Shown here piece after piece: positions 1,781 through 62,611 of a DNA stretch of 64,000 nucleotides. How positions within the stretch are numbered: position 1 is the first letter of the stretch; each line of letters begins with the position of its first letter. The notes beneath the pieces were generated by a model. That model was not told where the DNA came from. It saw only the letters and a program-made list of their open reading frames with translations, and did no database searches. Source of the stretch: Pisolithus tinctorius (lineage: Eukaryota; Basidiomycota; Agaricomycetes; Boletales; Pisolithaceae); NCBI GenBank assembly GCA_024663395.1, contig JANFAH010000004.1, forward strand, positions 3,162,001-3,226,000, given 5' to 3'. Position numbers and translations under genes: made by a program.

Positions 1781-2813
1781 CTACTCGGCCTCAGCCATGG
1801 TGTCATCCTCCCTGCTGGACTCCTCCTCCTTGTCCTCACCATGGGCCCTCAGCCAGTCAGAATTGAGCTCAGATGAGCCTGAGTCTGAGGGGGACATGGC
1901 CATCCTGAAGCCATAGGACTTGTTGAGCATTGCCTCAAGCACATCAGCGATCCTACCAGAGTTCTCAGCCATGGTCTCATGGGCCTCAAAGAGGCCCACC
2001 AGGTTGTTTGCAATAAGCCCTGCAATGTTGATCAAGCACTCGAGCTTGTCTTCCAAGCCCAAGAATGCTGTTGCACCAGGCCCCCTTGGTCTGCTCCCAC
2101 TGGCCTCGTCTTCATTGACATCCAACACCTCCAGTGGCTTGTCAATGGCCTTCAACTTCTTCTTACTAGGCCTGCGCTCAGGAGTCTCCTCATCAGCCTT
2201 CTGCTTCTTCCCCTTGTCGACTCTCCTGGCCTTGGGACTGGCCTCAATGTCCTTGCCATCATCAGGCCATCAGCACTTGCCTTTCAACAGGTTTCAGTGC
2301 ACACACACAACCCATTTCTTGTTGCTGTATATGAGGAACTTGCAGACAACCTGTGCCTGAGTGCAGCAGGTACAGCTAGAGGATGTTAGACAAGAAGAGT
2401 GCAGGTGATAGGAAAAATACTCACCCAGGGTCCATCACCACCCTCTTCACTTCACCCCTGGCCTCACCACTAGCACCCCCAGTGCCGGCCTCAGCCTTGT
2501 GCTTGCACTCAGCCTCCCACCTCTCCTCCTCTTCACACACTCTTCTCTCCTCAGCCTTGGCCTTCTCCCTCTCAGCCCTCTCGGCCTTGGCTTGCTCTCT
2601 CACCACCCTCTCGGCCTCAAGCCAAGCCTGCTCCTCCTGCCAGGCTTGCTCAGCTGCCTTGTGCCTTTTCCTCTCCTTCAATGTGGCCTTCATCACTTCT
2701 TCCTTGTTGTTGGTGTCATACCTAATTTTGTCATTGGGCACTTGGGTCCAGTTGATGATGGCATGGCCCTTGTTGTTGTTATTGGTGGCGATGATCAGTC
2801 TTGAGTCAGACAT
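1781..2813 (-). pseudogene. Antisense accessory gene of element 1, Zn(II)2Cys6-type protein
   Basis: This gene lies between the pol stop and the 3' LTR of element 1, on the opposite strand. Exon 1 starts at 2813. It encodes a short N-terminal segment and then a long Ala/Glu/Arg/Lys coiled-coil stretch (AKAERAEREKAKAEERR). A GT-AG intron (2376-2424) follows. Exon 2 opens with GCTCC and gives the spacing CX2CX6CX12CX2[stop]X6C, which is the fungal Zn(II)2Cys6 signature with the fifth Cys replaced by TGA. A basic stretch (KGKKQKAD), a second TGA just after the last Cys and an acidic Glu/Asp-rich C-terminus ending at 1781 complete it. The known role of such clusters is DNA binding by transcription factors; a regulatory role here is inference. 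Equivalent antisense genes sit at the same place in elements B, C and D. Confidence 0.72.
2376..2424 (-). other. Intron of the antisense gene in element 1
   Basis: On the minus strand the donor is GTGAGT and the acceptor CTCTAG, 49 bp in all, a normal size for basidiomycete introns. Splicing joins GG to C, giving a Gly codon immediately before the first Cys codon, so the reading frame passes from the coiled-coil exon into the Cys cluster. That a real intron restores the frame supports the antisense strand as the coding strand. Confidence 0.7.
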
Positions 2814-2920
2814 GATGAAGAGGATGTGAATGAAAGATGCAAAGGGCTTAGCAGGTCACAAGTACCAGTTTTTCAAACTCAGCCTGTCACTCTTGCAGGG
2901 GTCTCATGGGTTTGACCCCT

Positions 2921-2933
2921 AAGAGGGGGATAC
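2921..2933 (+). promoter_or_regulatory. Polypurine tract of element 1
   Basis: AAGAGGGGGA directly precedes the TGTCA start of the 3' LTR, with three bases between. It would prime plus-strand cDNA synthesis. Confidence 0.8.
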
Positions 2934-3442
2934 TGTCATAGCCATGTCTCAACCCCAGCCAGTCTTGGCCTCGTACTCATTCAGTCTGGCCTCAGCCTTG
3001 CCAATCCTATATCTCCAGTTAGTCTAGCGCAGTAACACTGCTTTGCAGTGCCTGTCACTTTGGTTGAATCCTGCCTGGTCCTGTCCCCAGTCCACCTGTC
3101 CTGGTCTCCATCGTCTTTGTCATACCTTACTAATACTTGTCTTACCAATCTTCTTAGCAATCTTTGCAAGACCAGCATTACCAGTCTCTGTACTATAGTT
3201 GTTTCTAGTATATAAAGCCTTAGATACTTGGCCTGTACTTCCTCAGTCTGAAATCAACAAAGTTATCCTGATAACCCTGTCTCAGCCTCAGACTCAGACT
3301 GAGACCCACACAAGGGAATAGCACTGCAATCTCAGTCGCTAAGTCCAATCAGTCCACCCATCTGTACCTCTGTCTCTCCTCTTGATCCTGACCCCTTGGC
3401 CTCATGCCTGCTTCGGTCTCTGGTCCGGACTCAACCTGGACA
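2934..3442 (+). repeat. 3' LTR of gypsy element 1
   Basis: The repeat opens with TGTCATAGCC right after the polypurine tract and contains a TATA-like TATATAAAG at 3209-3217. The end is placed at a ...CTGGACA just before sequence that aligns with LTR family B. The right end is therefore inferred from where the LTR-B similarity begins, and could be off by some bases. The matching 5' LTR is outside the window. Confidence 0.65.
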
Positions 3443-3839
3443 ACCCACAAACTTGACTTCCACCTACCCTCTGTCAGTTACAAACTTTCTCCAGTCTGAC
3501 TGTTGTCAGACTTGTGCTAGTCTGCCATCAGACCACATGGACCATTCTCTGAGGGGTTGTGTGACCTCCTTTTGGACTTCTCCTTGACAATGCACAGCCA
3601 GGTACTCTACAGCACATGCACTGCATGGTCCAGTGCCTGGACTGTTTCCTTTTCAGGATGTTCTGTGTTACCCATCCATATGTCCTCCATCTTCCCTTCA
3701 TTCATTGTCTAGGAAGTTTTACTCAAAAATTTATGAGTCTCTGTATGTCAGTTCTGATTCCAGTTACTGTACCCCTGTAATGGTATAAAAGCATGTACTG
3801 TACTCTGCCATTCTCCAGTACAAATATCAACTTAGTTCC
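3443..3839 (+). repeat. LTR-B copy, left part
   Basis: The sequence matches the solo LTR-B at 33066-33800 from about 75 bp inside its start, including the TATA-like GTATAAAAGC near 3783. Its beginning is cut off by element 1. It continues at 10203 on the other side of element A. Confidence 0.8.
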
Positions 3840-4239: not shown

Positions 4240-4253
4240 CTATCCCCTCCTAA
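4240..4253 (-). promoter_or_regulatory. Polypurine tract of element A
   Basis: On the minus strand AGGAGGGGATAG ends directly at the TGTAATG start of the LTR. The pol stop codon TAG overlaps its beginning. Confidence 0.75.
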
Positions 4254-7970: not shown

Positions 7971-7994
7971 GAAGAAGAAGAAGAAGAAGAAGAG
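7971..7994. repeat. GAA trinucleotide microsatellite
   Basis: Eight uninterrupted GAA units lie between gag and pol of element A. They fall in the decayed gag tail and seem to be secondary expansion. Confidence 0.9.
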
Positions 7995-8039
7995 GAAACA
8001 GGAACAAATGTCCATATGCTAGAGTCTGCACGACCCAAT

Positions 8040-16322: not shown

Positions 16323-17029
16323 TGTCAAGTCTGGGCCTACTCCGACCAACTCTGATGCTAAACAAGGTCTAGAGAGTGGTTCAGAAGCAAGTCTGACACA
16401 AAAGAACAGAACTCTGCCTGGCAGAGTGGTGGCAGGAATGAAGTCTGCTGAAGCAAAGGTGGAGCAGAGTGAGGGCATCAGGTTTAGCTCATGTGCTACC
16501 CCCTTGCATGATCTCAGCCCTTGTATTTCAGAGGGAGAGTACAGACAGAGGTCAGAGACAGAAGGAGTAGGAACTAAGTCGATATTCATACTGAGGAATG
16601 GTGGAGTATGATACATGCTTTTATACTACTATGGAGGTACAGTAACCGGAATTGGAACTGACATATGGAGACTTGTAAATTTTCAAGTAAAACTTCCCAG
16701 ACGATGAATGAAGGGTAGATGGAGGACATACAAGCAGGTAACATAGAACATCCAAAAAAGGAAACAGTCCAGGCACTGGACCATGTGGTGTGCATGCTGC
16801 AGAGTACCTGACTGCATGCTGTCAGGGAGAAGTCTGAAGGTAGTCACATGACCCCTCAGAGAATGGTCTGCCTGGTCTGGTAGGAGAGCAACACAAGTCT
16901 GACAGTAGTCAGAGTGGAGATGGTTCATAGACAATAGAAGGTGGGTGGAGTTGGTGTGGAGTGAGTGAATGACTGGTGGAAAAGGGTGCAGAGTTAGTGA
17001 TGATGCAGGATGAATGCATGGTCATGACA
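16323..17029 (-). repeat. 3' LTR of element B
   Basis: 707 bp. It is 26 bp shorter than its partner because a segment next to a repeated ACAGACAGAG near 16550 is missing. It carries the family's TATA-like TATAAAAG in reverse orientation near 16617. Confidence 0.92.
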
Positions 17030-17124: not shown

Positions 17125-18407
17125 TTGAGGATAATGGATTTAGCTGCAGTGGAGCTCCGTCGGAGTTTGAAGTACCACTTAAAAACACATGTCAGGGTAC
17201 TGAACCTTTGTCCTTCCCTCCCATCATCATGTCCTTCCAGCATGAGAACACAACCCCCCAACCAACCCCAGGCCACTCCTGTGACTACTCCCAAGTCATG
17301 GACAACACATTGGTCATCCTCACTGATGACTCAACTGACACCAAGCACGAGGAAAATGCAGAGAAGACCTGTCAGAGGGAGGAGGTGGAGCAGAAAGAGA
17401 GGGAGCACAAGGCAGAGTGCAAGGCCAGATGATGAAAGGCAGAGGAGGCACAACTGGAGGTGGAGCAGAGGCAGAGAGAAGAGGAGGAAGCACAGAGGAA
17501 GAAGGTGGAGGAGGAAGAGGCAGAAAGTGGCAGTGGAGGAGGCTGAGAGGCAGAGGCAGAGGGCCTCCCAGGAGTGGGCTCAGGCCAGTCAGGATGAGGC
17601 CATGCAAAAGTGAGCGACAAAGCACTGTGAGTCAGGCAGAGCTGACTTGTATTTTACCTTACCCTACTTTCATTTCAGGTTAAGCGGCATGGTGTACAAT
17701 ATCAACACTGCCCAGAGGGTCCCTGGGACCTCTGTGGTGGTCACTGATACCAGGAGGCCACCTTGCACTTGCTGCATAGCAAGTCTGACAGGGGGTCAGT
17801 GCCTGCATGCCCTGTCACAACAAGAAAAAGATGTGCAGCTGGATGCAGGAAGAGGTGGTAGCGGGACCTTTGCAAAAGAGGGCAGGGATGGTGAGGGAAG
17901 GGAAAGGAGACAGTGATGGAGATGGAAGAGGCAGGTGATGAGCAGGAGGCAGGTGGAGAGGACAAGGAAGAGCCAGCAACACTGCATGAGGGACCCTTAG
18001 GAGCAGGGGTCTCTTCCTGGTGGATGGAGTGGGAGTGGGAGTGGCAGCTGCAGGCTGCAGAGAGGTACATGGCAGTGCACGAGAAGGCTGCGACAGCCTT
18101 TGAGAGGATGGCAAGGGCAGCAGAGTGGATGGTGGAGGCTGTGGAGTGGACAGCCAACGAATGGGGGCTGTACTGTGAGTGGGCAGAATGGGCAGAGATG
18201 AGGAGGAGGGAGGATGTGCAAGAGGCCAGGATGGCTGAGCTCAAGCACACAGGTGGAGGATGGAAGAGGCCTCAGCTGGAGGTGGTGGAGGACAAGAATG
18301 AGGAAGTGGATGAAGGTGCAGCAGGGGATAATGAGGAAGAAGTCAAGGGAGAGCAGGAGGGCAGTGAAGAACAGGAGGGTGGTGGAGAGCAGGTGATGGA
18401 AGAGTAG
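17125..18407 (+). pseudogene. Antisense accessory gene of element B, Zn(II)2Cys6-type protein
   Basis: This gene is on the plus strand while gag-pol of element B is on the minus strand. Exon 1 has MSFQHENTT near 17229, VILTDDS and a Glu/Arg/Lys coiled coil up to about 17610, broken by TGA codons. An intron from GTGAGC near 17611 to TTTCATTTCAG near 17680 is likely. Exon 2 shows PPCTCC (first Cys pair). After a one-base shift in a G run near 17790 comes CMPC, six residues and C, the second half of a Zn(II)2Cys6 cluster with exact spacing. The third Cys is missing. The rest (17913-18407) is rich in Trp, Ala and Glu, with WMEWEWEWQ, a probable coiled coil, and an acidic tail. A T-rich stretch follows the stop. 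Its place and structure match the antisense genes of elements 1, C and D. Confidence 0.68.
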
Positions 18408-18605: not shown

Positions 18606-21600
18606 CTATGGCGGAGGTTGATATGGGCCAGGCTTGTGTGGATAGCATTCATGGAAAGCAGAGACTATGTTGGAAGCGTGATCTAGTTCAGTTGCAAGCA
18701 ACCAAGAGGTTTCTTCGTTGGTGTTCTCATAACCAGCCCAGCAGACTAGATACAAGAGTTGACAATGGCAGTGACAGTGGTCCACCTTAGAGTCAAGTAT
18801 CTCTGATACTTCATACTCAAGGTCACCATCGACATCCACTGGCAGAGGTGGAGGTTGTTGTCAGTTTGGGAAAGGGTTAGCTGCTGCAGCTTCCAGTTGT
18901 GAGACATGGAAGACCAGATGTACTGAGCACATAGAGTCAGGGAGCTTAAGGGTGACAGAGTGCATACCTGGCCTGGCCAAGATGGTGAATGGACCTAAGT
19001 ACTTTTCAGAGAGTTTTTCCAAAGGATGAGTGGAGCAGAAGTACTTGGCTTTGACATAGGCCTGTTCTCCAACCTTGAACTCAGGTGGAGGTATGTGTTT
19101 AGCATCTGCTGGACCCTGGTAGCACTGCTGAGCAGTGGACATTTCAGAGCAGAGGAAGTCATGAAGGGCAGAGAGCTCAATGACATAGTCATGAGCCCTT
19201 GGAGAGGTGAAGTCTTGGTCAGGGACCACAGACAAGTTTGGATGATATCCCTTGTTCGTGAAGAAGGGAGAGACTCCAGTAGTCACACTTGGTGTGTTGT
19301 TGAAAGCAAACTCCACTAGAGGTAACAGCTCAGCCCAATTGTCTTGTTGGTAGTTACAGTAGACATGAAGGTACTGCTCAAGGGTCTGGTTCATTCACTC
19401 AGTCTGGCCATTGCCTTCTGGGTGGTAACCTGAAGTGAAGTGAAGACACATATCAAGGGCCTTTCCTAGAGAGTGGAAGAAGTGTGAGACAAACTCAGGA
19501 CCTCTGTCAGAGGTGACATTAGCTGGAACTCCATGCTTTGAGAAGACATGGGTTAGGAAGAGCTTAGCAAGTTTGGTGGAGGTGATGGAGTTGTGGGTGG
19601 GGATGAACACTGCTTGCTTTGAGAGGCAGTCCACTACCACAAGGATGGCAGAGTAGCCACTGGAGTTGGGGAGGTGTTTGATGAAGTCCATGGAGATGGA
19701 GTTCCAAGGTCTCTCTGGAACAGGGAGTTGCTTCAGTAGACCATAGGGGTGGTGGTGCAGAGTTTTGCTCTGTCCACAGGTGGTGCAAGACCTGACGTAC
19801 TCTTTCACATTGGAGTGGAGGTTAGGCCACACATAGTCTCTGCAGATGAGTTCCAGGGTGCAGTTCTGCCCAAAATGGCCTGCTAGAGGATGGTCATGCT
19901 TGAACCAAAGCACTCGAAGGTGGAGATCATCAATGTCAGGGACAAAGATGCGACCATCAAGGCAGAGTAGACCGTCAGAGTCCAGGGACCACTGAGGCTT
20001 AGTCAGAGTTGGAAGATGGCTGGCAGAGACAGGGTTGGAGGGTAGGGCAGAGATGATGTTGGAGTGCAAGCACTCAATATCGAAGACCATGGCAGCACAG
20101 AGCACAGGTGCCATGAGGGTGGTGGTAAGGAGGGATGACACAAGTTGCTCCTGTGTAAACATAGGGCAGAGATTGTGGGGATTTACCTGTGCATAGTCCC
20201 TATCCACCCCTTTTGGGTAGATGTCCCAATGCCACATAAGCATGTTGGGTTTGGCTCCAAGGCAACCAGGTCGGAAGTGGATGGAAAGATTGAACTGGGA
20301 AAGGTACTCCAACCAGTGGGCCTGTTGACGAGTGAGAACCTTAGAGGTGGAAAAATACTCAAGGTTTTTGTGGTCCATCACCATGTTGACAGTTAAGGCG
20401 GAACCTTCTAGGTAATGCCACCAATGGTGGAAAGCCTTGAAGATAGCCAACAGCTCCTTGTTGTGGGTATCATAGTTGAGTTCCAGTGCAGTCATGGTGC
20501 AGGAGTAGAAAGCAACTGGGCAGAGTTCACTGTTGGAGCAGGTGATTGACAAAATGCCAGCAATGGCATAGTTGGAGGCATTGGTTTCAATTGTAAGCAG
20601 AGTGTCAGGGACCCAGTGAGTGAGAACAGGAGCAGAGCTGAAGGCATCCTTCAGGCAGAGGAAAGCAGAGTGGCACTCCTCAGAAAAGTTCCAAGGAGCA
20701 CCCTTTCATGTGAGGTGAGTGAGTGGAACAACGATGTCGGAGTAGTTATTAATGAACCATCTGTAGAAATTTGTGAAACCAAGGAAAGACTGGATGTCTC
20801 ACACCTTCCATGGCTCAGGCCAGTTGCGGACTGCCTGAACCTTCCCAGTGGACATGGTGAGACCAGAGGGAGAGAGGACATAACTGAGGTACTTGATGGA
20901 GTCAGAGTGAAACTTGCACTTCTCTGGCTTGGCATAAAGACCATGCTTTCAAAGGTGGTGGAGTACCTCTTTTACATGTTCACAGTGCAACTCCATGTTC
21001 TGCAAGTAAATTAGGATGTCATTAAGGTATACCATGACACAGACATCAAGCATGTCTGCAAAGATGCTATTCACGAATCGCTGGAAGGCCACAGGTGCAT
21101 TAGTCAGACTGAATGGCATTACCCACCACTCGTAAGAACCATAATGAGTGCAGAAAGCCATTTTCCATTCATCTCCATCTGTGATGTGGACTAGATGATA
21201 GGCATGGCAGAGGTTGATCTTGGTATAGACTTTAGCATGGCTTGGGGAGTCGAGTAGATCAGAGATGAGCAGCAGTGGATAGCAATCTTTTTTCATGATT
21301 TTGTTGAGTCCTTGATAGTCTATGCAGAGGCGGAGTGAACCATCCTTCTTCTTTATGAAGAGGACAGGGGCACTGTGAGTGGAGGTGGACTGTTTGATGA
21401 AACCATAGCCAAGATGCTTGTCAATGAAGGTGCGGAGAGCTTCAAGCTCTGGCAGAGAAAGAGAGTAGATCATGCCAATGGGCAGAGAGGCTCCTTCCTC
21501 AAGGTCAATCTTGAGATCGAATGAGTGGTGTGGTGGAAGTTCAGTAGCCTTGTCTTTCCTAAAGATGTCAGCAAACTTGTGATACTCAGGAGGAACTGAG

Positions 21601-22166
21601 GAGAGGTCAGGAGGCAGGGAAGAAGCACAGGATGCACAAAGCTTCACATCATCAGCAGAGAGCTGTAAGTGGAACTGTCTAGAGCCAGGGAGAGCACAGG
21701 CTCTGACATATGCAGCAGCATTGATGAGTGAGATGAGCAGAGCAGAGCATGGCAAGTCTGTTGGAGGTGCAGTCAGAGCTGCAAATGGAGTGGAGGGTGT
21801 TGGATTTGGAGTGGAGGTCATAGTGGAAGATGACGAAGGTGCCTGGGGTGTCAGCATTCCCTGTAACAATGGTTTGAATGATATACTGCCCAGTACCCAG
21901 TCAATCAACGGATTGAAGTGGGTGAGCCAGTTGTGTCCTAATACCAGTGAACATGAAGAATCCAACAGAGTAACATAAAATGAAATGGAACTGACATCAC
22001 CAGAAGGGAAGCAGAGGGAAAGATCTACTTCTTGGGAAATGACAGCATTTGTACTACCATCAAACAAGCAGAGCAGAATTGGCAGAGAAACAGAGGAAAC
22101 AGGAATGGCATATTTTTTGATTATTGACAGGTCTATGAAACAATGAGAGGAGCCAGAATCGATCAA
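18606..22166 (-). pseudogene. Pol of gypsy element B
   Basis: On the minus strand the protease (MIDSGSSHCFID) opens at 22166 and is followed by reverse transcriptase. The catalytic box near 21040 reads YLND instead of YxDD, so the first Asp has become Asn. RNase H follows around 20550-20300, with frame breaks and stops between 20949 and 20552. The integrase has HDHPLAGHF with CTTC, SMDFIKHL, TSDRGPEF and GNGQTE, so the three acidic residues are kept. A TGA directly after GQTE at 19395 cuts the chain. A chromodomain (LVCWAGYENTNEETSW) ends at 18606 after another stop near 18860. The layout is the same as element 1, to which it is closely related. Inactive copy. Confidence 0.93.
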
Positions 22167-23108
22167 TGCAGAAACAGTATCAACAGAATAATCCAGAAGA
22201 GTTACAGATGGAAGTAGAGAATTGGGACTAGAAAGAGTGGATGCATTGAGTCAGATGTCCGGCTGCACACAGTTGAGATCAACACTTCCTCCAGGCTGTG
22301 CAAGCTCCCTGGAGGAGCAGACTAATTTTTTGGCTCTGCCTTCTCTGCAGACAGAGGAGGCAGAGTTCTAGCCATAGCTGCACAGGCTTTGGCTGTGTGA
22401 GAGGTGGACTTGGGACAGTCCTTGGCAGAGTGGCCAGCCTCACCACAGAAGAGGCAGAGGTTGTTCTTCATCCTGTGCTGGCATTCAGTGGAGGTGAGTT
22501 TGCCATCCTTGCCCAGAAGATGGGCAATATCAGACTTGGGTGGATCTTTCTGTCTGCCCTTGCCCTTGGTGTCAGACTTTGGAGCAGAGGAGGATGACAA
22601 TGATTTAGTTTTGTTGTTGGAGTTGGAAGACTGTGACTTGTCAGAGGCAGACTTGGTGGTGTGCGAGATTTCTGCTTTACACTCCCAGTAGCACGCATCA
22701 ATAGTCTGAGCGAGTTCACAGAGTCGTGCAAGGGTAGAAGGTTTTCTGATGTGAGTGATCTCATCCTTGATGTGGTCTGGAAGACCACTATAAAAGTGGT
22801 GGCAGAGTGCACCAACACTGTAGTCCTTGACTTGTGAAACCCAGTGATTGAACTCCATGACAAATTTGGTAATTTGAGAACCATCTTTCATGGTGAGGTT
22901 CTCAAGTTGTTGGACAGCATCTGCTATGACATCATGTGGACTGAAATTAGTTGTGAGCTCTTGTAAGAACTCATGGTAGTCGTCCATCCAGAGTGGGCAG
23001 TCATAGTTGTCAGGATTTAGTAGGTCTGGCTCGAACCAAGCCAGAGCCATACCCTTGAGATAAGACTGAGCGAAGGTGACCTTGGCTCTGTTGGAGCAGA
23101 ATGTGCGG

Positions 23109-48361: not shown

Positions 48362-51300
48362 TACCATCACTTACCTATTCCTACAGTGGACAGCAGATTA
48401 CTCTCTGTGACCCAAATGACAGCTGTGAGTACACTCTGCCCATGTGCCTGTGGTGCAAGGGCTGCCCATGCTTTAAGTGCGACAAGCACTGCCATAGTCA
48501 CCAGAGTATTGTTGAATGGGATTTTTGAATATTGATGATCCACCAAACAGTCAGAGAGAGCCTACTAAGATGTCCTGTTTGCTATTCAGCTGCTGCTACC
48601 CATTCCTCATTCCCACAGTGTCTTCCCTAGCCTTCACCTCAACAAACTTCTGTTTGCCCATGGCACCCAAGCTGCAGAATATACCAGAATTCCCTCACCC
48701 ACTTTCACTTTCCTCTCCTCCACTCAGATGATACTAAATCCCTCTGCTATAGCTGCCCTTAATAGCATTTACCAACTAGACCCCACACTCTGCACCCTCA
48801 TGTACAAGCCAGTTGCCAAGAAGGTTTGGACAGTACCTGCCCTGATGGTGGAAGAATTCTGCATCATGTGCAGTCCACCTGATGATCTGCTCACTGGCCT
48901 CCAACCACTACCCACACACCCACCAGACTTCACTCCAGGCATTCATTTCACTGCTGAAAGGGCTGCAGAGCTTGATCTCGATCTGGCAGGCTGCTTTGGC
49001 CAGAGGAACTTAAACTTGTAACTTGGCTTGTTTTGGTCCATGAGCCCACATTTGCTTGGGATATCACAGAGTGCAGACACCTAGATGAACACTATTTCCC
49101 ACCTGTAAAGATCCCCATGATTCCACACATGCCTTGGGTCCAACACAGTATCCCTATCCTGAGTGTGATACATGCCCAAGTCATCAACATGATTAAAGAT
49201 CACATCAAGTCTGGCATGTATGAACCTTCTACAGCAGCTTACTGCTCTCACTGGTTCTGCATAGTAAAGAAAGATGGAAAGTCTCTTTGCCTTGTACATG
49301 ACTTACAGCCCCTGAATGCAGTGACCATCCATGATGTGTCTGTCCTGCCCTTTGTAGAACATCTTGCAGAGTCCTTCACTGGATATGTGGTGTATGTGAT
49401 GATGGACCTCTACTCTGGGTATGACCAGTGCACACTTCACATTGATTCCCATGACCTCACTGTAATGACTGGTAGACTTTTCACTTTTGTGTTTCCTGGT
49501 TGCCCATATATATATCTACCCTCTGGTTAGGGTTACACTTTAGGGATGCTTAGTCATCTCGGACCTTTCTGTTCTGTTTACTCTTTCACACTTACATGAT
49601 GCTTAGTAATGCTGTGCCTCATTACTAATGCATGTTCATGTTCATCCAATAGTGTAGTTCTCTCTTTTGTTTGTTTCTTTCCAGAATGTTCTCTCATGGC
49701 AGTACATACAAACAGTAGGGCAGTATATAAGTCCTGTCATTTGTTGTAGCCAGGTTCTCTAATCTAGTTCATTTTGAGCTTCTTTCTCAATCAACAGGTT
49801 CCACTCCCAACTCTCTCTGGTTTGAAGTGATAGCTGAGAAGACTCTCATCTTTGGTTGCTTCACTCACCACCTTCAGTACCCCACTTGGACTGCATTGGC
49901 TTACTACTCTGCCACAAGGTCATGTGAATGCAGTCCAGGTATACCAGGGAGATACTGCATTTGTGCTTCAGGATGAGATCCCACATCATACCTTGCCTTT
50001 CATAGATGACATCCCCATAAAATCAGAGACCACCTGCTATCAGTGCACAGACAGTTCCTATGAGACTATCCCAGAGAACCCTGGGATCTGGAAGTTTATC
50101 TGGAATCACTGTATAGTCATTAGCCACATCCTTCAGCATTTGCAGAATGTTGGAGCCACCATCTCAGCAAAGAAGTTCATCCAAGCCACTCCATCTGCTG
50201 TGATTGTTGGCCACAAGTGCACCTTTGAAGGTTGCATTCCCAAGGAAAGCAAAGTGCAGAAAATCTGTGACTGGCCCAAGTGCTGCAACCTGACACAGGT
50301 TCACAGTTTCCTTGGTGTCTGCAGTGTCCTCCACATCTTCATCAAGGACTTCACCAAGATCATGTGGCCACTGGTCATACTCACACAAAGACATACTATT
50401 TACATGGGACAAACTGCAATGTGCTGCCATGCAATGATTCAAGGATGAAATTATAAAGTCCCCCACACTGCAGCAGATCGACTACAAGTGCAGTTGCAAA
50501 GCCATTCTAGCTGTTGACACATCAGTCATCACAGTCAGCTACATCCTCTACCAGCTCAGTGAAGATGGAAAATGATACCCTAGTTGCTTCAGATCCATCA
50601 CCTTCAATGAAGTGGAAAGCTGCTACTCCCAGTCTAAGCTCGAGTTGTATGGCCTCTTCCATGCATTGTGCATGGTATGGGTATATGTCTTTGGTCTCAC
50701 TAACTTCACTGTGGAGGTAGATGCGAAGTACATTAAGGGCATGATAAATAACCCAGATCTGCAGCCTAACACAACGATCGATCACTGGATTGCTGGCATC
50801 CTCCTCTTCTCATTCAAACTCATGCATGTTCCCACAGAAAAGCATGCCAGCCCTGATGGCCTGTCCCACTGCCTGCAGTCAGAACTTGACTTGCCTGAGG
50901 ATGATGACCATGAGGATTGGTTAGACCATTTTTACTCTTTCTCTACAGAGGCTGTCAATGACTGCCTGCCTCCTACATCTCTTTCCAATCATGATCACCA
51001 TTCCTTACCACCACCTTCTTACCATCTGGCAAGCCTCCCACCACCTGCATCCTTCTATCTCGCCTTCTCTGTGACTGCTGATGCTGATAACACCCCAGAT
51101 ATCTCTGATGACCCTGCCATCCTGCAGTCTGCAAAGGCTCATGCATGGGAGGAAAAGATTGAAATGATCCATGCATTCCTCATGAGCTGCGTGCAACCTC
51201 CTGACCTTACCAATGCACAGTACTCCTCCTTCCTTAACTCTGCCAGCTGCTTCTTCCTTCTAGATGGCAACTTATGGCATAGGGAACCGCATGGATGGCA

Positions 51301-52524
51301 CCAGCTAGTTGTTGATGAGTCCAAGTGGTATCACCTCATCAAAGAAGTGCATGATGACCTTGGACACAAAGGTGTCTTCATGGTCCACACCCACCTTCTC
51401 CTCCGCTTTTGGTGGCCTCTGCTTGTCAAGGACTTGAAGTGGTATGTTTGCACTTGTCATGAATGTCAGATCCAACAGATGCAGAAGCTTCATATCCCTC
51501 CCACTGTGCCCATGATAAGGGGCCTGTTTCATAAAGCTCACATTGACATGATGCTAATGCCCAAAGCTGGTGGCTACCACTACATAGTACAGGCTAGATG
51601 TGCACTTACCTCATATCCTGAATGGTGCATGCTTTGTGCAGAAAATAGTACCATGCTCATGTCCTTCATCTTCAAGGACATTCTATGCTGCTGGGGTCCA
51701 CTTGCTGAAATTGTCATGGACAATGGTCCCACATTCATCCAGGCCTTGGATGCCCCAGCCATGCAATATCATATCCATCACATTTGTATCTCTCCTTACA
51801 ACTCTCAGGCTAATGGTATCATAGAGCACTGCCACTATGAAGTTTGTGAGGCTATCATGAAGAGCTGTGAGAATGACAACTGCTGCTGGCACACTGTCAT
51901 GCACTCTGTGTTCTGGGCTGAGCGAGTCACCATTCTGAAGTCCATGAGTTTATCTCCTTCATGGTCCACAGTGTTGAGCTGCTGTTCCCATTTGACCTTG
52001 CTGAGGCTACTTTCCTTTTGCCCCTATCCCACAAAGATGTGTCACTGCTGACTACCACAGAACTGATTGCCTGGCATGTGCACCAGTTACAGAAGCATCA
52101 GGATGACCTAGACCAGGTCCATGATAACATCCTCTGCACATGCTTCCAGTCTATCCAGCAGTTCAAAGACACCTTTCTGCATTGCATCAAAGACTATAAC
52201 TTCACTCCTGGCACCCTCATGCTTGTTCACAACTCCCATGTAGAAAAAGAACTGAACTGGAAGATGAAGCCAGGTACACTGGCCCCATGGTCATCCTTCA
52301 TCAGACCACTGGGGGCTCAATACCTGCTGGCTGAGTTGGATGGCTCCATCTCCAAACTCTGCTTCGCTGAATTCTGCCTACTTCCATACCACCCATGGTC
52401 TCAAACCCACACAACCATCACTTGCACTACTGGGTTAGATGACAAAGAACTAGACCAACTTCTTGAGGAGGCTGAGGATGACCCCACTAATGATGAGGTA
52501 GAGGCTTTTGCCTCAGACAGCTGA
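48362..52524 (+). pseudogene. Pol of gypsy element C
   Basis: After a protease remnant (SGQQITLCDPND, stop at 48528), the reverse transcriptase N-part runs 48728-49460. It has IVKKDGKSLCLVHDLQPLN and MMDLYSGYD. A solo LTR-A then interrupts it within HDLT. The frame resumes at 49864 with TTFSTPLG and the catalytic LPFIDD near 50005. RNase H shows ILAVDTS near 50505, with a TGA in ENGDGK*YP-like sequence near 50575. From 50612 to 52051 comes RNase H end and integrase: HDDLGHKG with CHECQ, HIDMMLM, VMDNGPTF and NGIIEH, all three acidic residues kept. A frame change near 51955 leads to the C-terminal part, ending in an acidic tail at 52524. There is no chromodomain. Confidence 0.92.
49461..49863 (+). 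repeat. Solo LTR of family A in reverse transcriptase of element C
   Basis: 403 bp, TGTAATGACT...TTGCTTCA, flanked by CTCAC (49456-49460 and 49864-49868). A TATA-like TATATAAG is at 49724-49731. It belongs to the same family as element A. Confidence 0.96.
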
Positions 52525-53439: not shown

Positions 53440-54541
53440 CTACTCAATTCCATGCTCTGCCAGAGCCTCTGCAAGCTGCTTGATGTGCACCTGCAGATGA
53501 AGGTTGGCTGAATGTGTGGCCACTGCCTCAGCCCTTACCATTCCAAGTGCCTGCAAGAGCTCTGTCACAGCTTTGCCACTCACCCTGCTGTGCACTGGTG
53601 CCTTTCTCTTGCTGTGCCCACAGGTTTTGACCACCTCCATGATGTCATTGTCATCATTGTCATTGGTTCACTTTGATGGACCAGCCTTCATGGCCTTCAT
53701 GGATTGCACTGTTGTGCATTAGCTTTGGACCTGTTAAGACAATCCCACCACTTACCAATGGATGCACCAGCCTGCACCTTCTTCCCTGCAGCCTTGCTCA
53801 ACTTTTTGCAACCTTGCTTGATGCACATGCATGTGTTGCATGTCTTCCCCAAGGTACCAGTGCATGGTGTGTTCTTCAGTGTGCACTGCATGCATGCCTC
53901 CTTGTGCATGATCAAGGCTGTGGCTGGGATGCAGGTCTTCAGCTGGGTAGACTCTTTGTCACTCTCAGCGATCATCTGTCAAGATTGCTGTGTGGCTGTG
54001 GTGTCAATAACACTACACCACACAACTGTGGGTACTTACCTTGCAAGCCAGCTGTTGGACCTCCACATGGGACATCTTGGCTGCTGCACCTTCATCACTG
54101 ATCTCCACCATAGTCTCCTCCTCCATCTGAACATCCTGCTCAACCCTCACACATGCCTCAGCTTCCTCCATGGTCCACCATTCATAAAAATCATCTGCCT
54201 CTGCCAGCACAGGAGCATCCTCTGCATTGACCCAAATGGAGATCCCAAGTGTCTTCCCTCACTCAACCAAGGGCATCAATGCCACCTGCAGCAGTCTTGT
54301 CAACCCACATGACCACATCCCTGAATGAACCTCTTACTGTCTTCTCCTCCCAGTGCCTTAGCCATGTCATCTTCTCTTCCTACATATCCTCCCAATCATC
54401 AGGCACACATTTCACCTCAGTGATGAGCCCTGCCAATGCAGCTGTGAGCTGCTCTCTCAAGGAAGCCTTCTCTGCTTCCATGGGGTCTGGAGTCAATGTG
54501 TGGACAAGTTGGGACAGTTGAGGGGTGCAGTTTGCAGACAT
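53440..54541 (-). pseudogene. Antisense accessory gene of element C, Zn(II)2Cys6-type protein
   Basis: The gene reads against gag-pol. Exon 1 starts at 54541 (MSANCTPQLSQ) with a helical segment (SLREQLTAALAGLI), a stop near 54385 and an acidic part (EEETMVEISDEGAAAK). A GT-AG intron at 53976-54039 joins ACK to the next exon in frame. That exon has a perfect CX2CX6CX7CX2CX6C cluster (ACMQC...TPC...KTC...NTC...QGC) followed by basic KKLSKAAGKK. A second intron (about 53709-53755, donor GTAAGT) leads to a last exon with TCGHSKRKAPVH and a coiled-coil-like end (LHLQVHIKQLAEALAEHGIE, stop at 53440). The cluster spacing is that of fungal Gal4-type zinc-binding domains. It is the best preserved of the four antisense copies, though exon 1 has stops. 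Confidence 0.75.
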
Positions 54542-54649
54542 GGTATGAACAAGAGAGATGGTTGGTAATGGGGGGAGAAAGAATCGATTCGATGCGAAGG
54601 TTTGAGCCGTGGACTAACAATTATATACTTAGCAACCATGAGGTGCTTA

Positions 54650-56412: not shown

Positions 56413-57065
56413 TGTAAGCAATCCACCTTCCTTGGATGTGTAAGCCCCTATCATCTACCATTCCACAATATTGTTATGTTCCTGGACCTCTCATATCCAC
56501 CATTGTTCACACACTACCTTCCCATGCCCTCACTCCCTCTCACACAATGCTATACCCATGGCCACTGTGCTCTGCTCACTTCCCTTCTTTTGGACTCTTT
56601 CTTTTAACATGGTCTCTGTTCCCTTTTTGTTAGTAGTATACCCTCAGCCTCTGTTCAGGCCTGTCTCATGTTTATGTGCTGTCACATGGCTTTCCTTTAC
56701 TTGTACCCTGTCTTACTTAGGTTCCAGGTTTGCCTGGACTATAAAGCCCTGTACTTAGGTACAGAATGATACCTTTTGGCACTGGGAAGGTCACTACAAG
56801 TTTCTTTTTCACTTTGTCTTCTCTGCACACCTTGCAACAACCACACACAAACTACACATACTGCTCACAACACTCACACCACCAGTACTACACTGTGGAC
56901 CATGCCACACATGTCATGAATCATTACCACTACAAAGCACTGAGTCCTGCCTTCTAGTTTTGACAGTCCAGAATCCCTTGGGACAAGAAATTCATTCCCT
57001 TCATTTTATTGTTGTTACCTAAGCCATCTAGCTCATATTATACAGCTACTTGGACTTTTCCTACA
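56413..57065 (+). repeat. 3' LTR of element C
   Basis: 653 bp, TGTAAGCAATCC to TTTTCCTACA. It matches the 5' LTR at 31218 with mostly C/T and G/A differences. Confidence 0.88.
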
Positions 57066-57610: not shown

Positions 57611-58045
57611 GCTCTTTGTGCCCGGCAAGGCCGACTCACAGGCCTGGCACCACAGTGCTTGAGGTTCTTGGGTTGAGGTTGGTCACTCTGAAAGTTCAAG
57701 GTGTGCTGTTGTCTGTGATGTTCAACATTGCATGTTAAAGTCTTTAATATGTTGTTGTAGTGTCCAAGCCCATTTACTATCTCTCTTCTGTGTTCTACTG
57801 TAACATCTCTGCCATCATCCCTAATTGGGTTCAAACTTCCATTGTATTCACATTCACATCACTGCTCGCCATTGATGCACTGACAGGATGACATCTTTCC
57901 AGCCTGCAGCAGTTTCATCTGGGGCAGATCCATGCAGAGATGTAGAGGACCTACTCTATGTACACCTCAATGATGTCATGCATGTCTTCTTCAATGTGAA
58001 TGTCAATTGCATGCAACAGTGTCTGCATATTCATAAACATGTAAC
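57611..58045. other. Upstream region of the F-box-like gene and junction to element D
   Basis: I see no further gene. Somewhere between about 57900 and 58100 the sequence passes into the truncated pol of element D. No LTR or duplication marks the junction. Confidence 0.45.
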
Positions 58046-60798
58046 ATGCCTCACTGGGATCTTGTGCATGTTGATTTTTGTCAAAAAAGATGTAATGTCT
58101 ACAGAATTTTAGATCTTATGGTCAGATACGATCATCACACCATCCATGACAAATACCATGATCTTACTACTTTCCAAACCCCTATTGGTACCCTTCGACT
58201 CACCAAACTCCCTATGGGCTACACAAATGCCATCCAGATTTTCCATGGAGACATCTGTTGGATATTGAAGGATGAAATTCCAGAAGTTACCCTCCCATTC
58301 ATTGATGACTGCCTGATCAAAGGCCCCAAATCTTGTTACCAAAATTCTGATGGTACCTACCAGATGATCACACAAAACTCTGGGATCAGATGCTTCATCT
58401 GGGAACATCTGCAGAATGTCAACTGCATCTTACATCATCTGCATCATGCAGGAACTACTGTCTCAGCAAAGAAATGTGTCATCGCCATGCCATCTATCAT
58501 AGTGGTTGGTCATAAGGTGTCATTTGAGGGGAGAATTCTGGATGAAGCTAAAGTCCAGAAAATTAAAGATTGGCCCTACTGCACTAATGTCACTGAAGTG
58601 TGTGGATTTCTAGGTCTTTGCTCATATTGCAGGATCTTTATCAAGGATTTCACTAAGCATGCATGTCCCCTCATTGAGCTGACCAAGAAAGATGTCTCCT
58701 TTGAATTCTGCAATGAACACAGAGAAGCCATGGATTATCTTCACCAAGCTATTGTCTTGTCCCCTGCACTATGCACTATCAACTACAATTCTGATAGGAA
58801 GGTCATTCTGGCAGTCAACACTTCAAATATCACTATAGGATACCTCCTCATGCAGGAGGGGGAAGATGAAAAATGCTACCCTGTGAGGTTCAGCTCGATA
58901 ACTCTCAATGACCACAAATGCCATTACAGCCAAGCCAAACTGGAGCTCTTTGGTCTTTTCCATGCTTTACATGACATCAGACTTCACATTTTTGGTGTGT
59001 GGAATTTAGTTGTCAAGGTTGATGCATGATATATAAAAGGGATGATTAACAATCCTGACTTACAGCCCAACACTACCATCAACTGCTGGATTGTGGGAAT
59101 TCTTTTATTTGACTTCAAGCTTGTACATGTCCCTGCACACAAGCATGTGGCACTGGACAGTCTATCAAGGAGACCAAAAGCAGAAGAAGATGAGGATGGG
59201 GAAGAGGACTATGAGGAGTGGATAGATGAGTGTGGAGCCTTCACTGTTGAGCTCTTGAACTGTAGGGAGGCCCATTTTGAGTCTCAGCCTTACCCTTCAG
59301 CAATTCCAAGTACCTTGTCAGACTCACCCTTGGTCTTGTCACAGAGTCTAGGCATCTATTCCTCTGAACAAACCTTGCTGAGTGTCTACAAGATGGAAAT
59401 TCTGCACTCAGAGACAGCAATCCAGAGAGAGGAGAGGTTGAAAGTGGTGAAGGAATTTTTGGAGATGAAGAAGACACCAGAAGGATTGGAGGAAGGGGAG
59501 TTGGAAAGCCTGGTGCATCTTGCCACTCAGTATTTCATCAAAGGAGGAGAGCTGTGGAGGAAAGACCCCCAAGGATGTCACCAACTAGTGGTCACCCCTC
59601 ACAAATGCCTCAGGATTCTTTGTCAGGCTCATGATGAGCTAGGACACAAGGGTATCTACTTGACCTGCATGTGTTTGCTGACTCATTTCTGGTGGCCTAT
59701 GCTAGAGCAGGACATCCACTGGTACATCAAGTCATGTCACAAGTGCCAAATACACTGTTTGGATCACATACATATTCTGCCAGTCATTGCCATCCCTGAG
59801 CCCCTATTCTTCAAAGCATATATGGACATGTTCTTAATGCCAAAGTTGAATGGATTTTGCTATGTCACCCAAGCTCGCTGTTCACTCACTAGTTACCCAG
59901 AGTGGGCTATGCTTTGTGCAGAAACTGGCAAGTCCATCAGAAAATTCATCTTTGAGCAAATCTTGTGCTGCTGGGGTGCTGTTGCAGAAATTGTCACAGA
60001 TAATGGTGGTCCCTATGTCCTCACCCTCAATTGGCTCTCCAAGACCTTTGGAATTTGCCACATATGAATCTCACCTTATAACTCACAAGCTAATGGAGTT
60101 GTTGAGCATTGGCATTTCGATGTGAGGGAGGCATTGGTAAAGAGTTGTGGTGGAGAAGCATCAAAGTGGTCAGAAGTGGCTCCAGCAGTGTTCTGGGCAG
60201 AGAGGGTTATGATTCACAAGGAAACTGGGTTTTCTCCATTTTATATGGCTCATGGCATCGAACCTAGACTCCCCTTTGACATTGCTGAGGCAACATTCTT
60301 AGCCCCTTTCAAGGCAGAATTTTACTTGATGACAGAACTCATCACCCATTGTGCTCAACAACTCCAGAAACATTCAGAAGACCTTGCTCACATCCATGAT
60401 CTCATTCTGAAGTCTCACTTTGTGTCAGTCAAAGACTTCGTTGCTTGTTTTGCACACACCATCCATGACTTCAACTTCAAACCTGGGTCACTCATCCTTG
60501 TGCAGAATTCATGTATTGAGCGAGAACTAGATTGCAAGACCAAACCATGCTACCTAGGCCCCATGATCATCATTCAGCATACCAAAGGAAGCTCATATAT
60601 CCTGGTGGAATTAGATGGTGCCATGTCCAAATTCCATTCACCACCTTCTGTCTTTACCCATATTTCCTGTGGAACAACTCTCGTATCAAAGTCACACAGT
60701 TGACTGGAATTTCTGCAGGTGACTTAGATCACCTGGAAGACAATTCATTACCAGACCCTGCACTTGCTGGTGTCCCTTTGGATGAATCAGATGAGTAG
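58046..60798 (+). pseudogene. Pol of gypsy element D, 5'-truncated
   Basis: The sequence starts inside reverse transcriptase at about LDLMVRYDHH, so gag, protease and the first reverse transcriptase motifs are missing. TTFQTPIG, LPFIDD near 58310 and VCGFLGL follow. RNase H has ILAVNTS, where the expected Asp is Asn. A TGA at 59027-59029 interrupts DA-YIKG. The integrase has HDELGHKG with CHKCQ, MDMFLMP and VTDNGG. A TGA at 60065-60067 precedes SPYNSQANGVVEH with the catalytic Glu. A frame change near 60640 leads to the C-terminal end DLDHLEDNSLPDP, stop at 60798. Both TGAs fit decay of CGA. The element is of the same type as C. Confidence 0.92.
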
Positions 60799-61031
60799 CA
60801 CAGCTTTCTCTCTATCTTTTCCTTTCTTTTCTTTCCTCTCTCTGGTATTCCTTTTGCTTATACATATACCCTCTTTGTCTCATATGAAACAAAACCTCTC
60901 AAAAAAAAAATTCTGCTCATCTCTCTCTCATCTCTCACCAACTCATTCTCTTTTCCTGCTATTCTGTTCAAATACCAAAAGACACATCCAAAAGAAAATT
61001 CCGCAGTGTATTTTCCATACTGTACATGTAT

Positions 61032-62611
61032 TTACATGTCTCTGAGCTGATCCTTCAACCTCTTCAGCTCCTCATGTCACCCCTGAACCACACTGATCTG
61101 TTGCTCTACTTGTGTTGCCAACAGTGCCAGCATCTGGTGGATCTGGGACAACTCAAACTCCTCATCATCCACCCTACCCTCCAACAGTCAGATGCACTCA
61201 GCTAGAGCCTTGTGTGTAGTCAATTCGCTTGGGTTTGTGACCAGTGGAGTTTCTTCGACTGGGGGAACTTCAGACTTGTCCTGCTTGCTGATGATGGGTG
61301 TGGGTGGATCGTCCAATAATCCAGTTGGTCAGCCAAAGAGTCCACCATTGCTGAGGTCTCCCAGATTGTTCATAGGTGGTGGTGTTGGCTCAGGGAGAGG
61401 TTGAGGTGCAGGAGTTTCTGAGGGAAGGAAGAGAGGAGGTTGAGGTGCAGGAGGAGGCATGTTCAAGGTCGAAGGGGGACTAGCATGAGGTGTTGGGTGC
61501 CCAGGAGTTGGTTTGGAGTTTTGCCTGGGGGGTGGTTTGTGAGCAGGGATTCGAAGTTTCAGCCCAGTTGTCACCAGAGTTTTGGTTGTCACCATTACCA
61601 TTACTGACTTGGTCTGTTTGTGTGATGGCCCAGCAGCCATCTCTCCACTACCAGCATTCTTGTGCTGTGTTATGGTTCAGTGTTCTCATTCTTTGTGTCA
61701 TGATCAGCTTGTACTCACCTTCCTACCCACTCTGAGCAACCAGCTGCACTTCCGCTTGGCCTGCCTGCATCACTTGCATGACTCCCCAGGTAGCCCTTCA
61801 CACACTCCCTGCATTGAAGGTTGGCTTTGGGTGCCAGAGTGCCAGTGTTTGATGGGTCAGAGTTAGGTGGGCATTCGCCTTCATTGTCCCCCAGCTTGTC
61901 AACTTTGTCTGTGGCCTGTGGAGTTTTCTGAACAATTAACTGTCACACTCAGAGGTTCCTGGAGGGTAGGGCATACCTTTTCCTTACCCTTCCCCTTGCC
62001 TGCACTATCCACCTGTTGCCTCACCTGTCATCCAGTCCCCCTCATAGACTCCCCTGCTTCAGTGTCACTCAGCACATGGTCTTGACCTTCACCTACCGCC
62101 CTTGCTGTCTGTCTGTGCATACACATTGAAGGTTCTCTTGCCAACCTTTCCACCTTGAGCTGCACCCTCAACTCTACCCTCTCCTGGTAGTCTTCGAAGA
62201 TGTCATCTATGTGGATCCATCTCTTCTCCACTGGGCACTGGAGGTCAGTGATGGTGATGACACCTGGGACTAGAAGGTTTTGGCACATCGCAGATTCCTC
62301 AGTGTAGTCCCACATGCACTCATTGCAAACCTTCAGTATGGTAATCCCATTGTCATTGATGTATTTCCACCATGAGCAAATGCCAGCCTGTGGAACTCTA
62401 TCAACATGCAACACACTGCAGTGGAAGGTTTACTCACCCAAGTCTTGTCCCAGTCCTCCACCCATGCGTAGATCATATCCAAACTCTCCTCTGGCTGTGG
62501 TGCCATCTCAATCAGGTCCCAGATGTGCCCTAGAGCTTCTGAGAGTGCTGTGGTTGCCTGGTCCTTCATGCTGAATACAGGGCATGTGTCATTGACAGAG
62601 TAAGCTTGCAT
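61032..62611 (-). pseudogene. Antisense accessory gene of element D, Zn(II)2Cys6-type protein
   Basis: On the minus strand exon 1 starts at 62611 (MQAYSVNDTCPVF), with a helical part ending WVEDWDKTWV and a GTGAGT donor near 62438. The next exon (to about 62028) has WWKYINDNGITILKVCNECMWDY and a coiled-coil part with YQERVELRVQLKVERL. Near 61810-61745 lie CREC and, after an apparent short deletion, CEGLPGESC, stop, C, six residues, C. This is the second half of a Zn(II)2Cys6 cluster with exact CX7CX2CX6C spacing and a basic QAKRKC. A GTGAGT donor follows. The C-terminal region is Pro-rich (61640-61329) and ends in a coiled coil (HEELKRLKDQLRDM) at 61032. Order and location match the genes in elements 1, B and C. 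Confidence 0.66.

What the first reader, a model, noticed from the sequence alone, without database searches (positions are those of the whole stretch)
1781..62611. Four different gypsy elements each carry an antisense Zn-cluster gene at the same position
Elements 1 (1781-2813), B (17125-18407), C (53440-54541) and D (61032-62611) all have, between the pol end and the 3' LTR, an opposite-strand gene. In each it runs coiled coil or helical segment, intron, Cys cluster, acidic or Pro-rich C-terminus. The clusters are: element 1 CX2CX6CX12CX2(stop)X6C; B CX2C plus CX2CX6C; C complete; D CREC plus CX7CX2(stop)X6C after the stop is read as a residue. Elements 1 and B have chromodomains and C and D do not, so the gene spans two lineages. 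Convergent orientation and position suggest selection for a function. Element A, compact and without the gene, is a natural contrast.
Basis: partly seen in the sequence, partly recalled or inferred. Interest (0 to 1): 0.9.

Follow-up and report, generated by a model that had tools for sequence, protein, structure and literature searches.

The report
Jumping genes with a backwards zinc gene
In the genome of a forest fungus, several families of virus-like jumping genes each carry a small extra gene, written backwards at the same spot, for a possible zinc-binding control protein that natural selection has preserved, so these jumping genes may carry their own regulator.

Summary
The window lies in a 92.5-Mb genome, almost certainly Pisolithus tinctorius. 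Four gypsy families in two pol lineages each carry, between pol and 3' LTR, a multi-exon gene on the opposite strand. All four window copies hold stops; only C keeps its six cysteines. Genome-wide each family gave 119-150 scored matches. Family 1: 20 of 20 fetched loci have the gene antisense beside the pol end. D: 79 of 119 gene hits lie antisense behind a D-type pol end, none same-sense. In six exon segments the antisense frame has the lowest dN/dS (0.12-0.26) of all frames compared. Splice sites are conserved. Intact copies encode CX2CX6-8CX7-12CX2CX6C, like fungal Zn(II)2Cys6, but stay below Pfam's Zn_clus cut-off and have their basic residues in the second half. Antisense genes at this place are known in plant Retand/Grande/RIRE2 and Botrytis Boty (brtn); six searches of one open library showed no Zn2Cys6-like, multi-exon, basidiomycete case. 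Best explanation: an element-encoded DNA-binding regulator of the element. That function is inferred; transcription was not tested and structure prediction never ran. Common ancestry of the four genes is unresolved.

The parts
2425..2813 (-). Element 1 antisense gene, exon 1 (N-terminus and charged coiled-coil-like segment)
   Evidence: open in the window copy; 150 best of 460 candidates scored in own genome; 12 of 16 copies without stop, dN/dS 0.17
1781..2375 (-). Element 1 antisense gene, exon 2 (Cys cluster, basic and helical segments, acidic end); window copy has two stops
   Evidence: 150 of 438 candidates scored; GT..AG intron 2424-2376 conserved in most of 21 aligned copies; dN/dS 0.16
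29..1597 (+). Element 1 pol 3' part: integrase and chromodomain
   Evidence: Pfam Integrase_H2C2, rve, SH3_Tf2-1, Chromo
2934..3459 (+). Element 1 3' LTR (5' edge abuts the polypurine tract; 3' edge approximate)
   Evidence: alignment by eye with the about 530-bp LTR pairs found in 5 of 20 family-1 loci
17229..17609 (+). Element B antisense gene, exon 1 (two stops in the window copy)
   Evidence: donor GT in 11 of 11 copies
17679..18407 (+). Element B antisense gene, exon 2 (Cys cluster with a frame change in the window copy, Trp/Glu-rich helical segment, acidic end)
   Evidence: 150 of 392 candidates scored; dN/dS 0.22, controls 0.35-1.29
18633..23110 (-). Element B gag-pol with chromodomain (gag, protease, RT, RNase H, integrase)
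   Evidence: Pfam, chromodomain by tblastn
16323..17029 (-). Element B 3' LTR
   Evidence: direct repeat with 25513-26245, 87.6% identical
25513..26245 (-). Element B 5' LTR
54338..54541 (-). Element C antisense gene, exon 1
54040..54285 (-). Element C antisense gene, exon 2
   Evidence: GTAAGT donor in 10 of the 10 copies with letters there
53756..53987 (-). Element C antisense gene, exon 3 with the complete six-Cys cluster
   Evidence: 150 of 251 candidates scored; 11 of 11 copies without stop in the 73-codon segment, dN/dS 0.22
53440..53708 (-). Element C antisense gene, exon 4 (acidic stretch and C-terminal helix)
   Evidence: dN/dS 0.23
54622..54630 (-). TATATAA-like core promoter candidate of the C gene (position approximate)
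   Evidence: TATATAA in 8 and TATATAT in 2 of 11 C copies, about 80 nt before the ATG
49033..52524 (+). Element C pol (RT part, RNase H, integrase; no chromodomain found)
   Evidence: Pfam; C-D pol segments 42-54% identical
31218..31871 (+). Element C 5' LTR (aligned part)
   Evidence: 90% identical to 56413-57065
56413..57065 (+). Element C 3' LTR (aligned part)
62438..62611 (-). Element D antisense gene, exon 1
61977..62387 (-). Element D antisense gene, exon 2
   Evidence: 119 matches among 122 candidates; dN/dS 0.26
61719..61915 (-). Element D antisense gene, exon 3 (Cys cluster, decayed in the window copy)
   Evidence: dN/dS 0.47 over only 41 codons
61032..61664 (-). Element D antisense gene, exon 4 (Pro-rich, C-terminal helix)
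   Evidence: dN/dS 0.34
58037..60703 (+). Element D pol (RT, RNase H, integrase; no chromodomain found)
   Evidence: Pfam

Best explanation
Each of four gypsy families of Pisolithus tinctorius carries an accessory gene between pol and the 3' LTR, on the strand opposite to gag-pol, with introns that are in the orientation of that gene. SHOWN here: the gene is a resident of the element (fixed place, orientation and spacing), it is or was protein-coding under purifying selection, its splice sites are conserved, and intact copies encode a helical/charged protein with a six-cysteine cluster spaced like the fungal Zn(II)2Cys6 cluster. INFERRED: it is transcribed as an antisense mRNA from a promoter near the 3' LTR, spliced, and translated into a nuclear, probably self-associating, zinc-cluster protein that binds the element's own DNA and tunes its transcription, so that dose rises with copy number. 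The antisense orientation explains why introns persist: the genomic RNA carries their reverse complement, so they are not removed in a transposition cycle. Gene real, resident and selected: about 0.95. DNA-binding regulator of the element: about 0.5.
For: Residence: 20 of 20 family-1 loci, picked along the list, have the gene antisense next to the pol/chromodomain end, 19 within 300 nt, one 2.05 kb away. D: 79 of 119 gene hits antisense within 5 kb behind a pol end (89 of the 150 rows given), 0 same-sense, median gap 1474, IQR 1457-1494; 77 of 89 pol ends have the gene. C: 77 of 100 (100 of 150 rows, against 150 pol ends), 0 same-sense, median gap 1212, IQR 1204-1227. B: 29 of 60 (60 of 150 rows; 150 of 1854 pol candidates), 0 same-sense, gap 456-466. 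Selection: median dN/dS in six segments 0.16, 0.17, 0.22, 0.22, 0.12, 0.26; other frames 0.76-1.99 except the mirror sense frame 0.29-0.42; element 1 pol end 0.125. Splice: 18 of 21 donors GT and 19 of 21 acceptors AG in family 1; B, C and D mostly intact. Cluster: six Cys invariant in 23 aligned family-1 proteins, intact pattern in 106 of 120, 59 of 105 and 29 of 55 proteins of 1, C, D, against 0 of 5600 shuffles. Co-inheritance: gene and pol distances correlate in 16 loci, rho 0.41, 2 of 2000 permutations as high. Analogy: maize Grande gene23, a nuclear antisense-encoded protein with its own promoter (passages of PMC7264820).
Against: No transcript, zinc or DNA-binding data. Pfam Zn_clus stays below its cut-off (best E 0.026); hhalign to Gal4 gives 3.4% and 0.6%; the basic residues sit between Cys 5 and 6 rather than 2 and 3. 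The apparent excess of CGG/CCG pairs in the LTR is not specific: pol/gag windows of the same element have similar numbers. In D the Cys segment (0.47) and C-terminus (0.34) are less constrained, and D exon 2 is only slightly below its mirror frame (0.26 against 0.31). Structure prediction never ran.
Confidence: 0.5

Rival explanations
1. The protein serves integration or nuclear entry rather than transcription: a DNA-binding tether that brings the integration complex to preferred sites, complementing (1, B) or replacing (C, D) the chromodomain.
For: Present in elements with and without chromodomain; a nuclear role in integration complexes was raised for plant antisense proteins (PMC7264820 section read).
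Against: The gene is spliced from its own antisense transcript rather than made as part of pol, as integrase tethers usually are (recalled); no insertion-site test was made here.
Confidence: 0.15
2. It counteracts host silencing (for example RNAi or DNA methylation) as an element-encoded suppressor.
For: Faster divergence of the gene than of pol (mean distance 0.230 against 0.132) fits an arms race; many broken copies have TGA stops, as C-to-T changes at CGA would give (tables).
Against: dN/dS is low throughout, with no segment above 1 in the gene frame.
Confidence: 0.15
3. Only the antisense RNA matters (dsRNA or transcriptional interference); the reading frame is incidental.
For: Antisense non-coding transcripts of retroelements are known (passage of PMC7264820).
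Against: Frame-specific constraint, conserved splice sites and invariant cysteines.
Confidence: 0.05
4. A host Zn2Cys6 gene family is merely hitch-hiking in, or misread as, retroelements.
For: 40 of 119 D hits and 23 of 100 C hits examined were not linked to a listed pol end; public annotation calls many of them host 'hypothetical' or 'Zn(2)-C6' proteins.
Against: Fixed spacing and orientation, no same-sense case. Unlinked hits include fragments, and the pol lists were capped. The host's canonical Zn_clus set is separate: 75 hits, 48 over the cut-off.
Confidence: 0.04
5. The four genes arose by separate captures that converged on the same place and motif, rather than from one ancestral gene.
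For: Outside the cluster no similarity between families was found by profile comparison; 1-C 9% and B-C 28%.
Against: 1-B 90%, C-D 87% and 1-D 69%, same place and orientation, basic second half in 1, C and D.
Confidence: 0.35

Closest known systems
Plant Retand elements with antisense TRP28 ORFs (PMC11963269: abstract, Discussion section and passages seen)
   Same: gypsy; long pol-3' LTR region; antisense ORF in nearly all recently active families; suggested DNA binding and regulatory role
   Different: TRP28 is another domain and Retand is a non-chromovirus plant lineage; the words intron and zinc do not occur in the main text; here a six-Cys cluster, several introns and two lineages including chromodomain elements
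Maize Grande gene23 and rice RIRE2 antisense ORFs (passages and three sections of PMC7264820; originals not read)
   Same: antisense, between pol and 3' LTR; gene23 protein nuclear and transcribed from its own promoter
   Different: no zinc cluster mentioned there (0 occurrences of zinc); plants
Botrytis Boty antisense gene brtn (Zhao et al. 2011; only title, reference entries and passages in PMC7264820 and PMC8365987 seen)
   Same: fungal gypsy element with an antisense gene in the same place
   Different: ascomycete; I did not see the brtn protein, so homology or a Cys cluster could not be compared
Fungal Zn(II)2Cys6 transcription factors (Gal4 type; Pfam PF00172)
   Same: six cysteines with Zn2Cys6-like spacing, coiled-coil-like segment, basic and acidic regions
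   Different: below the Pfam cut-off, basic residues in the second half, encoded by a retroelement
HTLV-1 HBZ (recalled; only the antisense promoter in the HTLV 3' LTR is in a passage seen)
   Same: antisense, spliced, nuclear coiled-coil regulator from the 3' end of a retroelement, as a way of working
   Different: bZIP, not a zinc cluster; no claim of homology

Membership tests
Antisense accessory ORF between pol and 3' LTR (aORF-3R) | opposite strand to gag-pol, between pol and 3' LTR | tested here: met
   D's 3' LTR edge is inferred only
Antisense accessory ORF between pol and 3' LTR (aORF-3R) | present in most copies of the family and conserved | tested here: met
   D: 77 of 89 pol ends have it; dN/dS. 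For B (29 of 150) and C (77 of 150) the capped lists do not allow a rate from the pol side
Antisense accessory ORF between pol and 3' LTR (aORF-3R) | transcribed in antisense | not testable with these tools
   no RNA data; TATA-like box in 10 of 11 C copies
Fungal Zn(II)2Cys6 binuclear cluster (PF00172) | six cysteines, CX2CX6CX5-12CX2CX6-8C (spacing recalled) | tested here: met
   1, C and D fit; B has X8 in the first loop
Fungal Zn(II)2Cys6 binuclear cluster (PF00172) | Pfam gathering score of 21 bits | tested here: not met
   matches sub-threshold in 7 of 23 (1), 0 of 22 (C), 1 of 17 (D) members at E up to 1; best single scan 13.5 bits
Fungal Zn(II)2Cys6 binuclear cluster (PF00172) | basic recognition stretch between Cys 2 and Cys 3 (recalled for Gal4) | tested here: not met
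   mean net charge C2-C3 0.56, 1.19, 0.10 against C5-C6 2.00, 1.97, 3.72 for 1, C, D
Fungal Zn(II)2Cys6 binuclear cluster (PF00172) | two zinc ions bound, Gal4-like fold | not testable with these tools
Retand / TRP28 | TRP28 (Transposase_28) domain | tested here: not met
   no such Pfam hit listed
Boty brtn | homology to the BRTN protein | not tested
   sequence not available in the calls

The most novel reading that the evidence does not exclude
A widespread fungal counterpart of retroviral antisense regulators: gypsy retrotransposons of at least two lineages share an ancient antisense, intron-bearing zinc-cluster gene whose product is a self-made transcription factor acting on the elements' own LTRs. 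Its antisense orientation is what lets introns survive reverse transcription, and hundreds of proteins annotated as host Zn(2)-C6 proteins in such genomes are in fact element genes, a reservoir of DNA-binding domains for the host.
Probability: 0.33. Interest if true: 0.82.

Novelty: new variant of a known kind. Interest (0 to 1): 0.62.

Why it matters
Antisense accessory genes of LTR retrotransposons are known in plants and Botrytis, but their function is undetermined in the papers seen. Here is a fungal set with hundreds of copies, frame-specific selection, conserved introns and a recognisable candidate DNA-binding motif, which makes the question testable by ordinary biochemistry and reporter assays. 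It also bears on annotation: many 'Zn(2)-C6' or 'hypothetical' proteins of Pisolithus are retroelement genes, not host regulators. The conserved introns argue that the orientation itself is functional, because a sense-strand intron would be expected to be lost in retrotransposition.

Tried and rejected
CGG/CCG site excess in family-1 LTRs: large against dinucleotide shuffles (for example 19 inverted pairs against 4.6 expected) but pol/gag windows of the same element have 10-15, so I do not use it. I first took a palindromic unit beside C for its 3' LTR; its ends and the undisturbed relatives show an inserted palindromic transposon, and the true LTR pair is 31218-31871 / 56413-57065. A cross-test of D genes against C pol ends stopped with an error and is not used. 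Relatives in viral contigs: two scans, none. Solved-structure searches gave nothing significant (best E 0.086, 8.1 and 1.6). Idea of a host gene family: see rivals. Independent genera: could not be reached; protein searches were filled by Pisolithus.
Full report
WHERE IT IS. The window is part of a 92.5-Mb, 221-contig genome. Contig lengths shown for several contigs (for example 1431670, 1374859, 6752466) equal the longest contigs of proteins named BKA82DRAFT [Pisolithus tinctorius], so the host is almost certainly this ectomycorrhizal basidiomycete. Published work gives gypsy elements 19% of an earlier 71-Mb assembly of the species (passages of PMC5689174; the word antisense does not occur in its main text).

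THE FOUR ELEMENTS. Pol sequences fall in two lineages: element 1 and B (integrase 65%, C-terminal part 64% identical), and C and D (42-54%); between lineages 20-23%. Element 1 and B have a chromodomain; the scanned C and D pol ORFs show none. B has both LTRs (16323-17029 and 25513-26245, 87.6%). C has LTRs at 31218-31871 and 56413-57065 (90%) and is broken up by nested insertions. Element 1 is cut by the window start. For D only the inferred 3' LTR edge (about 62879) is in the window; no second LTR copy was found. In five of the 20 family-1 loci full LTR pairs of 524-532 nt were found, 94.8-100% identical, with one more partial pair, so the family includes recent insertions.

THE GENE. Reading each opposite strand gives: element 1, exons 2813-2425 and 2375-1781; B, 17229-17609 and 17679-18407; C, four exons between 54541 and 53440; D, four exons between 62611 and 61032 (exon joins agree with the annotated proteins aligned). 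Splice sites hold across copies. Family 1: 18 of 21 donors are GT and 19 of 21 acceptors AG; of the others L023 and L028 lack both and L021 lacks the donor region. C: donor GT after exon 1 in 10 of 11, after exon 2 in 10 of 10 copies with letters, after exon 3 in 11 of 11; D: 7 of 7 at three donors; B: 11 of 11 at its donor. The C gene has TATATAA (8) or TATATAT (2) about 80 nt before its ATG in 10 of 11 copies. The start codon lies about 120 nt (1), 200 nt (B), 270 nt (D, inferred) and 300 nt (C, in an uninterrupted relative) from the 3' LTR.

RESIDENCE. Searching the genome with exons gave 150 scored matches of 438 (1, exon 2), 392 (B) and 251 (C) candidates, and 119 matches of 122 (D). These include fragments and some duplicate contigs. 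All 20 family-1 loci picked at intervals have the gene antisense beside the pol end, 19 within 300 nt and one at 2.05 kb; in four (L027, L032, L034, L035) the pol-end match is split or partial. D: 79 of 119; C: 77 of 100; B: 29 of 60 gene hits lie antisense downstream of a pol end within 5 kb, with no same-sense case in any of the three; two C genes lie on the other side of a pol end. Gaps are tight: 1457-1494, 1204-1227 and 456-466 (IQR). For D I gave 89 of the 150 pol rows (those above the C-type ones), for C 100 of 150 gene rows, for B 60 of 150 gene rows; pol lists are capped at 150 of 1339, 512 and 1854 candidates, so the unlinked share is an upper bound. From the pol side 77 of 89 D ends have the gene; 77 of 150 (C) and 29 of 150 (B) are lower bounds.

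SELECTION. Codon tests (Nei-Gojobori, codons with gaps or stops skipped) on 21 (1), 11 (B), 11 (C) and 7 (D) copies gave median dN/dS: 1 exon 1 0.17 (five copies dropped for lack of alignable exon 1), exon 2 0.16; B exon 1 0.21, exon 2 0.22, Cys part 0.13; C exons 0.12, 0.21, 0.22, 0.23; D 0.12, 0.26, Cys part 0.47 (41 codons), C-terminus 0.34. The pol end of family 1 gives 0.125. Shifted frames gave 0.76-1.58 for the four segments tested; sense-strand frames gave 0.83-1.99, and 0.29-0.42 for the one frame whose third position mirrors that of the gene, always above the gene frame. For D exon 2 the difference from the mirror frame is small (0.26 against 0.31), but the mirror frame has stops in 7 of 7 copies and the gene frame in 3 of 7. 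Synonymous sites are near saturation, so pN/pS is also given: 0.28-0.38 in the gene frame against 0.41-0.56 in the mirror frame. Copies without a stop: 16 of 21, 12 of 16, 2 of 11 (B), 11 of 11 and 9 of 11 (C exons 3 and 1), 4 of 7 (D exon 2). In family 1 gene and pol distances correlate (rho 0.41, 2 of 2000 permutations) and the gene diverges faster (0.230 against 0.132).

THE PROTEIN. Intact copies read CX2CX6CX12CX2CX6C (1), CX2CX8CX9CX2CX6C (B) and CX2CX6CX7CX2CX6C (C, D). The pattern is intact in 106 of 120, 59 of 105 and 29 of 55 database proteins of 1, C and D, and in 0 of 5600 shuffles; all six Cys are invariant in 23 aligned family-1 proteins. Around it are a charged, coiled-coil-like exon 1 (1, B), helical segments, and acidic (1, B) or Pro-rich (D) parts, by reading. 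Pfam Zn_clus is only sub-threshold, though some public records are named Zn(2)-C6 fungal-type. Net charge is concentrated between Cys 5 and 6, the reverse of Gal4 as I recall it. hhalign links 1-B (90%), C-D (87%) and 1-D (69%), always over the cluster only; 1-C 9%, B-C 28%; Gal4 3.4% with D and 0.6% with 1. The Gal4 side was a single sequence, so that comparison is weak. Host canonical Zn_clus: 75 hits, 48 over the cut-off. Structure prediction never started.

DISTRIBUTION. Protein searches gave 182 (1; the 120 listed all P. tinctorius), 55 (D; 19 P. orientalis) and 105 (C; 8 P. orientalis) relatives. Only the 8000 best word-sharing candidates were scored, so other genera are not excluded. 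Two scans of viral contigs found none.

MECHANISM. The shown facts say: an element gene, protein-coding, spliced, opposite to gag-pol. The inferred step is that the zinc-cluster-like protein acts in the nucleus on the element's DNA. I prefer transcriptional control to tethering or anti-silencing because of the motif and the plant analogues, but no call decides this; a test for enriched CGG sites in the LTR failed its control. The intron argument is inference from the retrotransposition cycle: introns in gag-pol orientation would be spliced from the genomic RNA and lost, whereas introns in antisense orientation are carried as reverse complement.

LITERATURE. Six searches ran. Read: abstract, Discussion and passages of PMC11963269; abstract, three sections/parts and passages of PMC7264820; passages of PMC8365987 and PMC5689174; a term search of PMC3411680 (no occurrence of the terms). 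Antisense ORFs in this place: plant Grande, RIRE2, Retand, PvRetro13 and fungal Boty (brtn). None of the listings or passages seen describes a Zn2Cys6-like antisense gene in a basidiomycete gypsy element; subscription papers, including Zhao et al. 2011, were not seen.

VERDICT. Real, selected, and a new variant of a known kind; function inferred; common origin across the two lineages open.

Noticed in passing
37200-38776 and 54648-56223: Two 1.57-kb palindromic units with ends CAGTGAGGGACAAAAG; the second is inserted in element C at what looks like a duplicated TA (pogo/mariner-like, recalled). Arms 96-99% complementary.
   Followed up: partly
42718-46828: Minus-strand ORFs that read like a LINE (endonuclease-like and RT-like), lying inside the span of element C (no domain search made).
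   Followed up: no
14478-16625 and 27436-29737: ORFs that read like Helitron helicase/Rep remnants (by eye).
   Followed up: no
3454-3840, 10197-10480, 33064-33804: Further B-type LTR copies; element A (about 3840-10152) is nested in the first.
   Followed up: partly
own genome C17:1347943, C44:548716, C45:532440, C110:105664, C115:82351, C133:39121: Six D-like gene fragments with the same score (49%, 73.7 bits), several close to contig ends: perhaps a subtelomeric repeat carrying a D-type gene.
   Followed up: no
own genome: Stops inside copies are mostly TGA, as C-to-T change at CGA codons would give; not counted.
   Followed up: no
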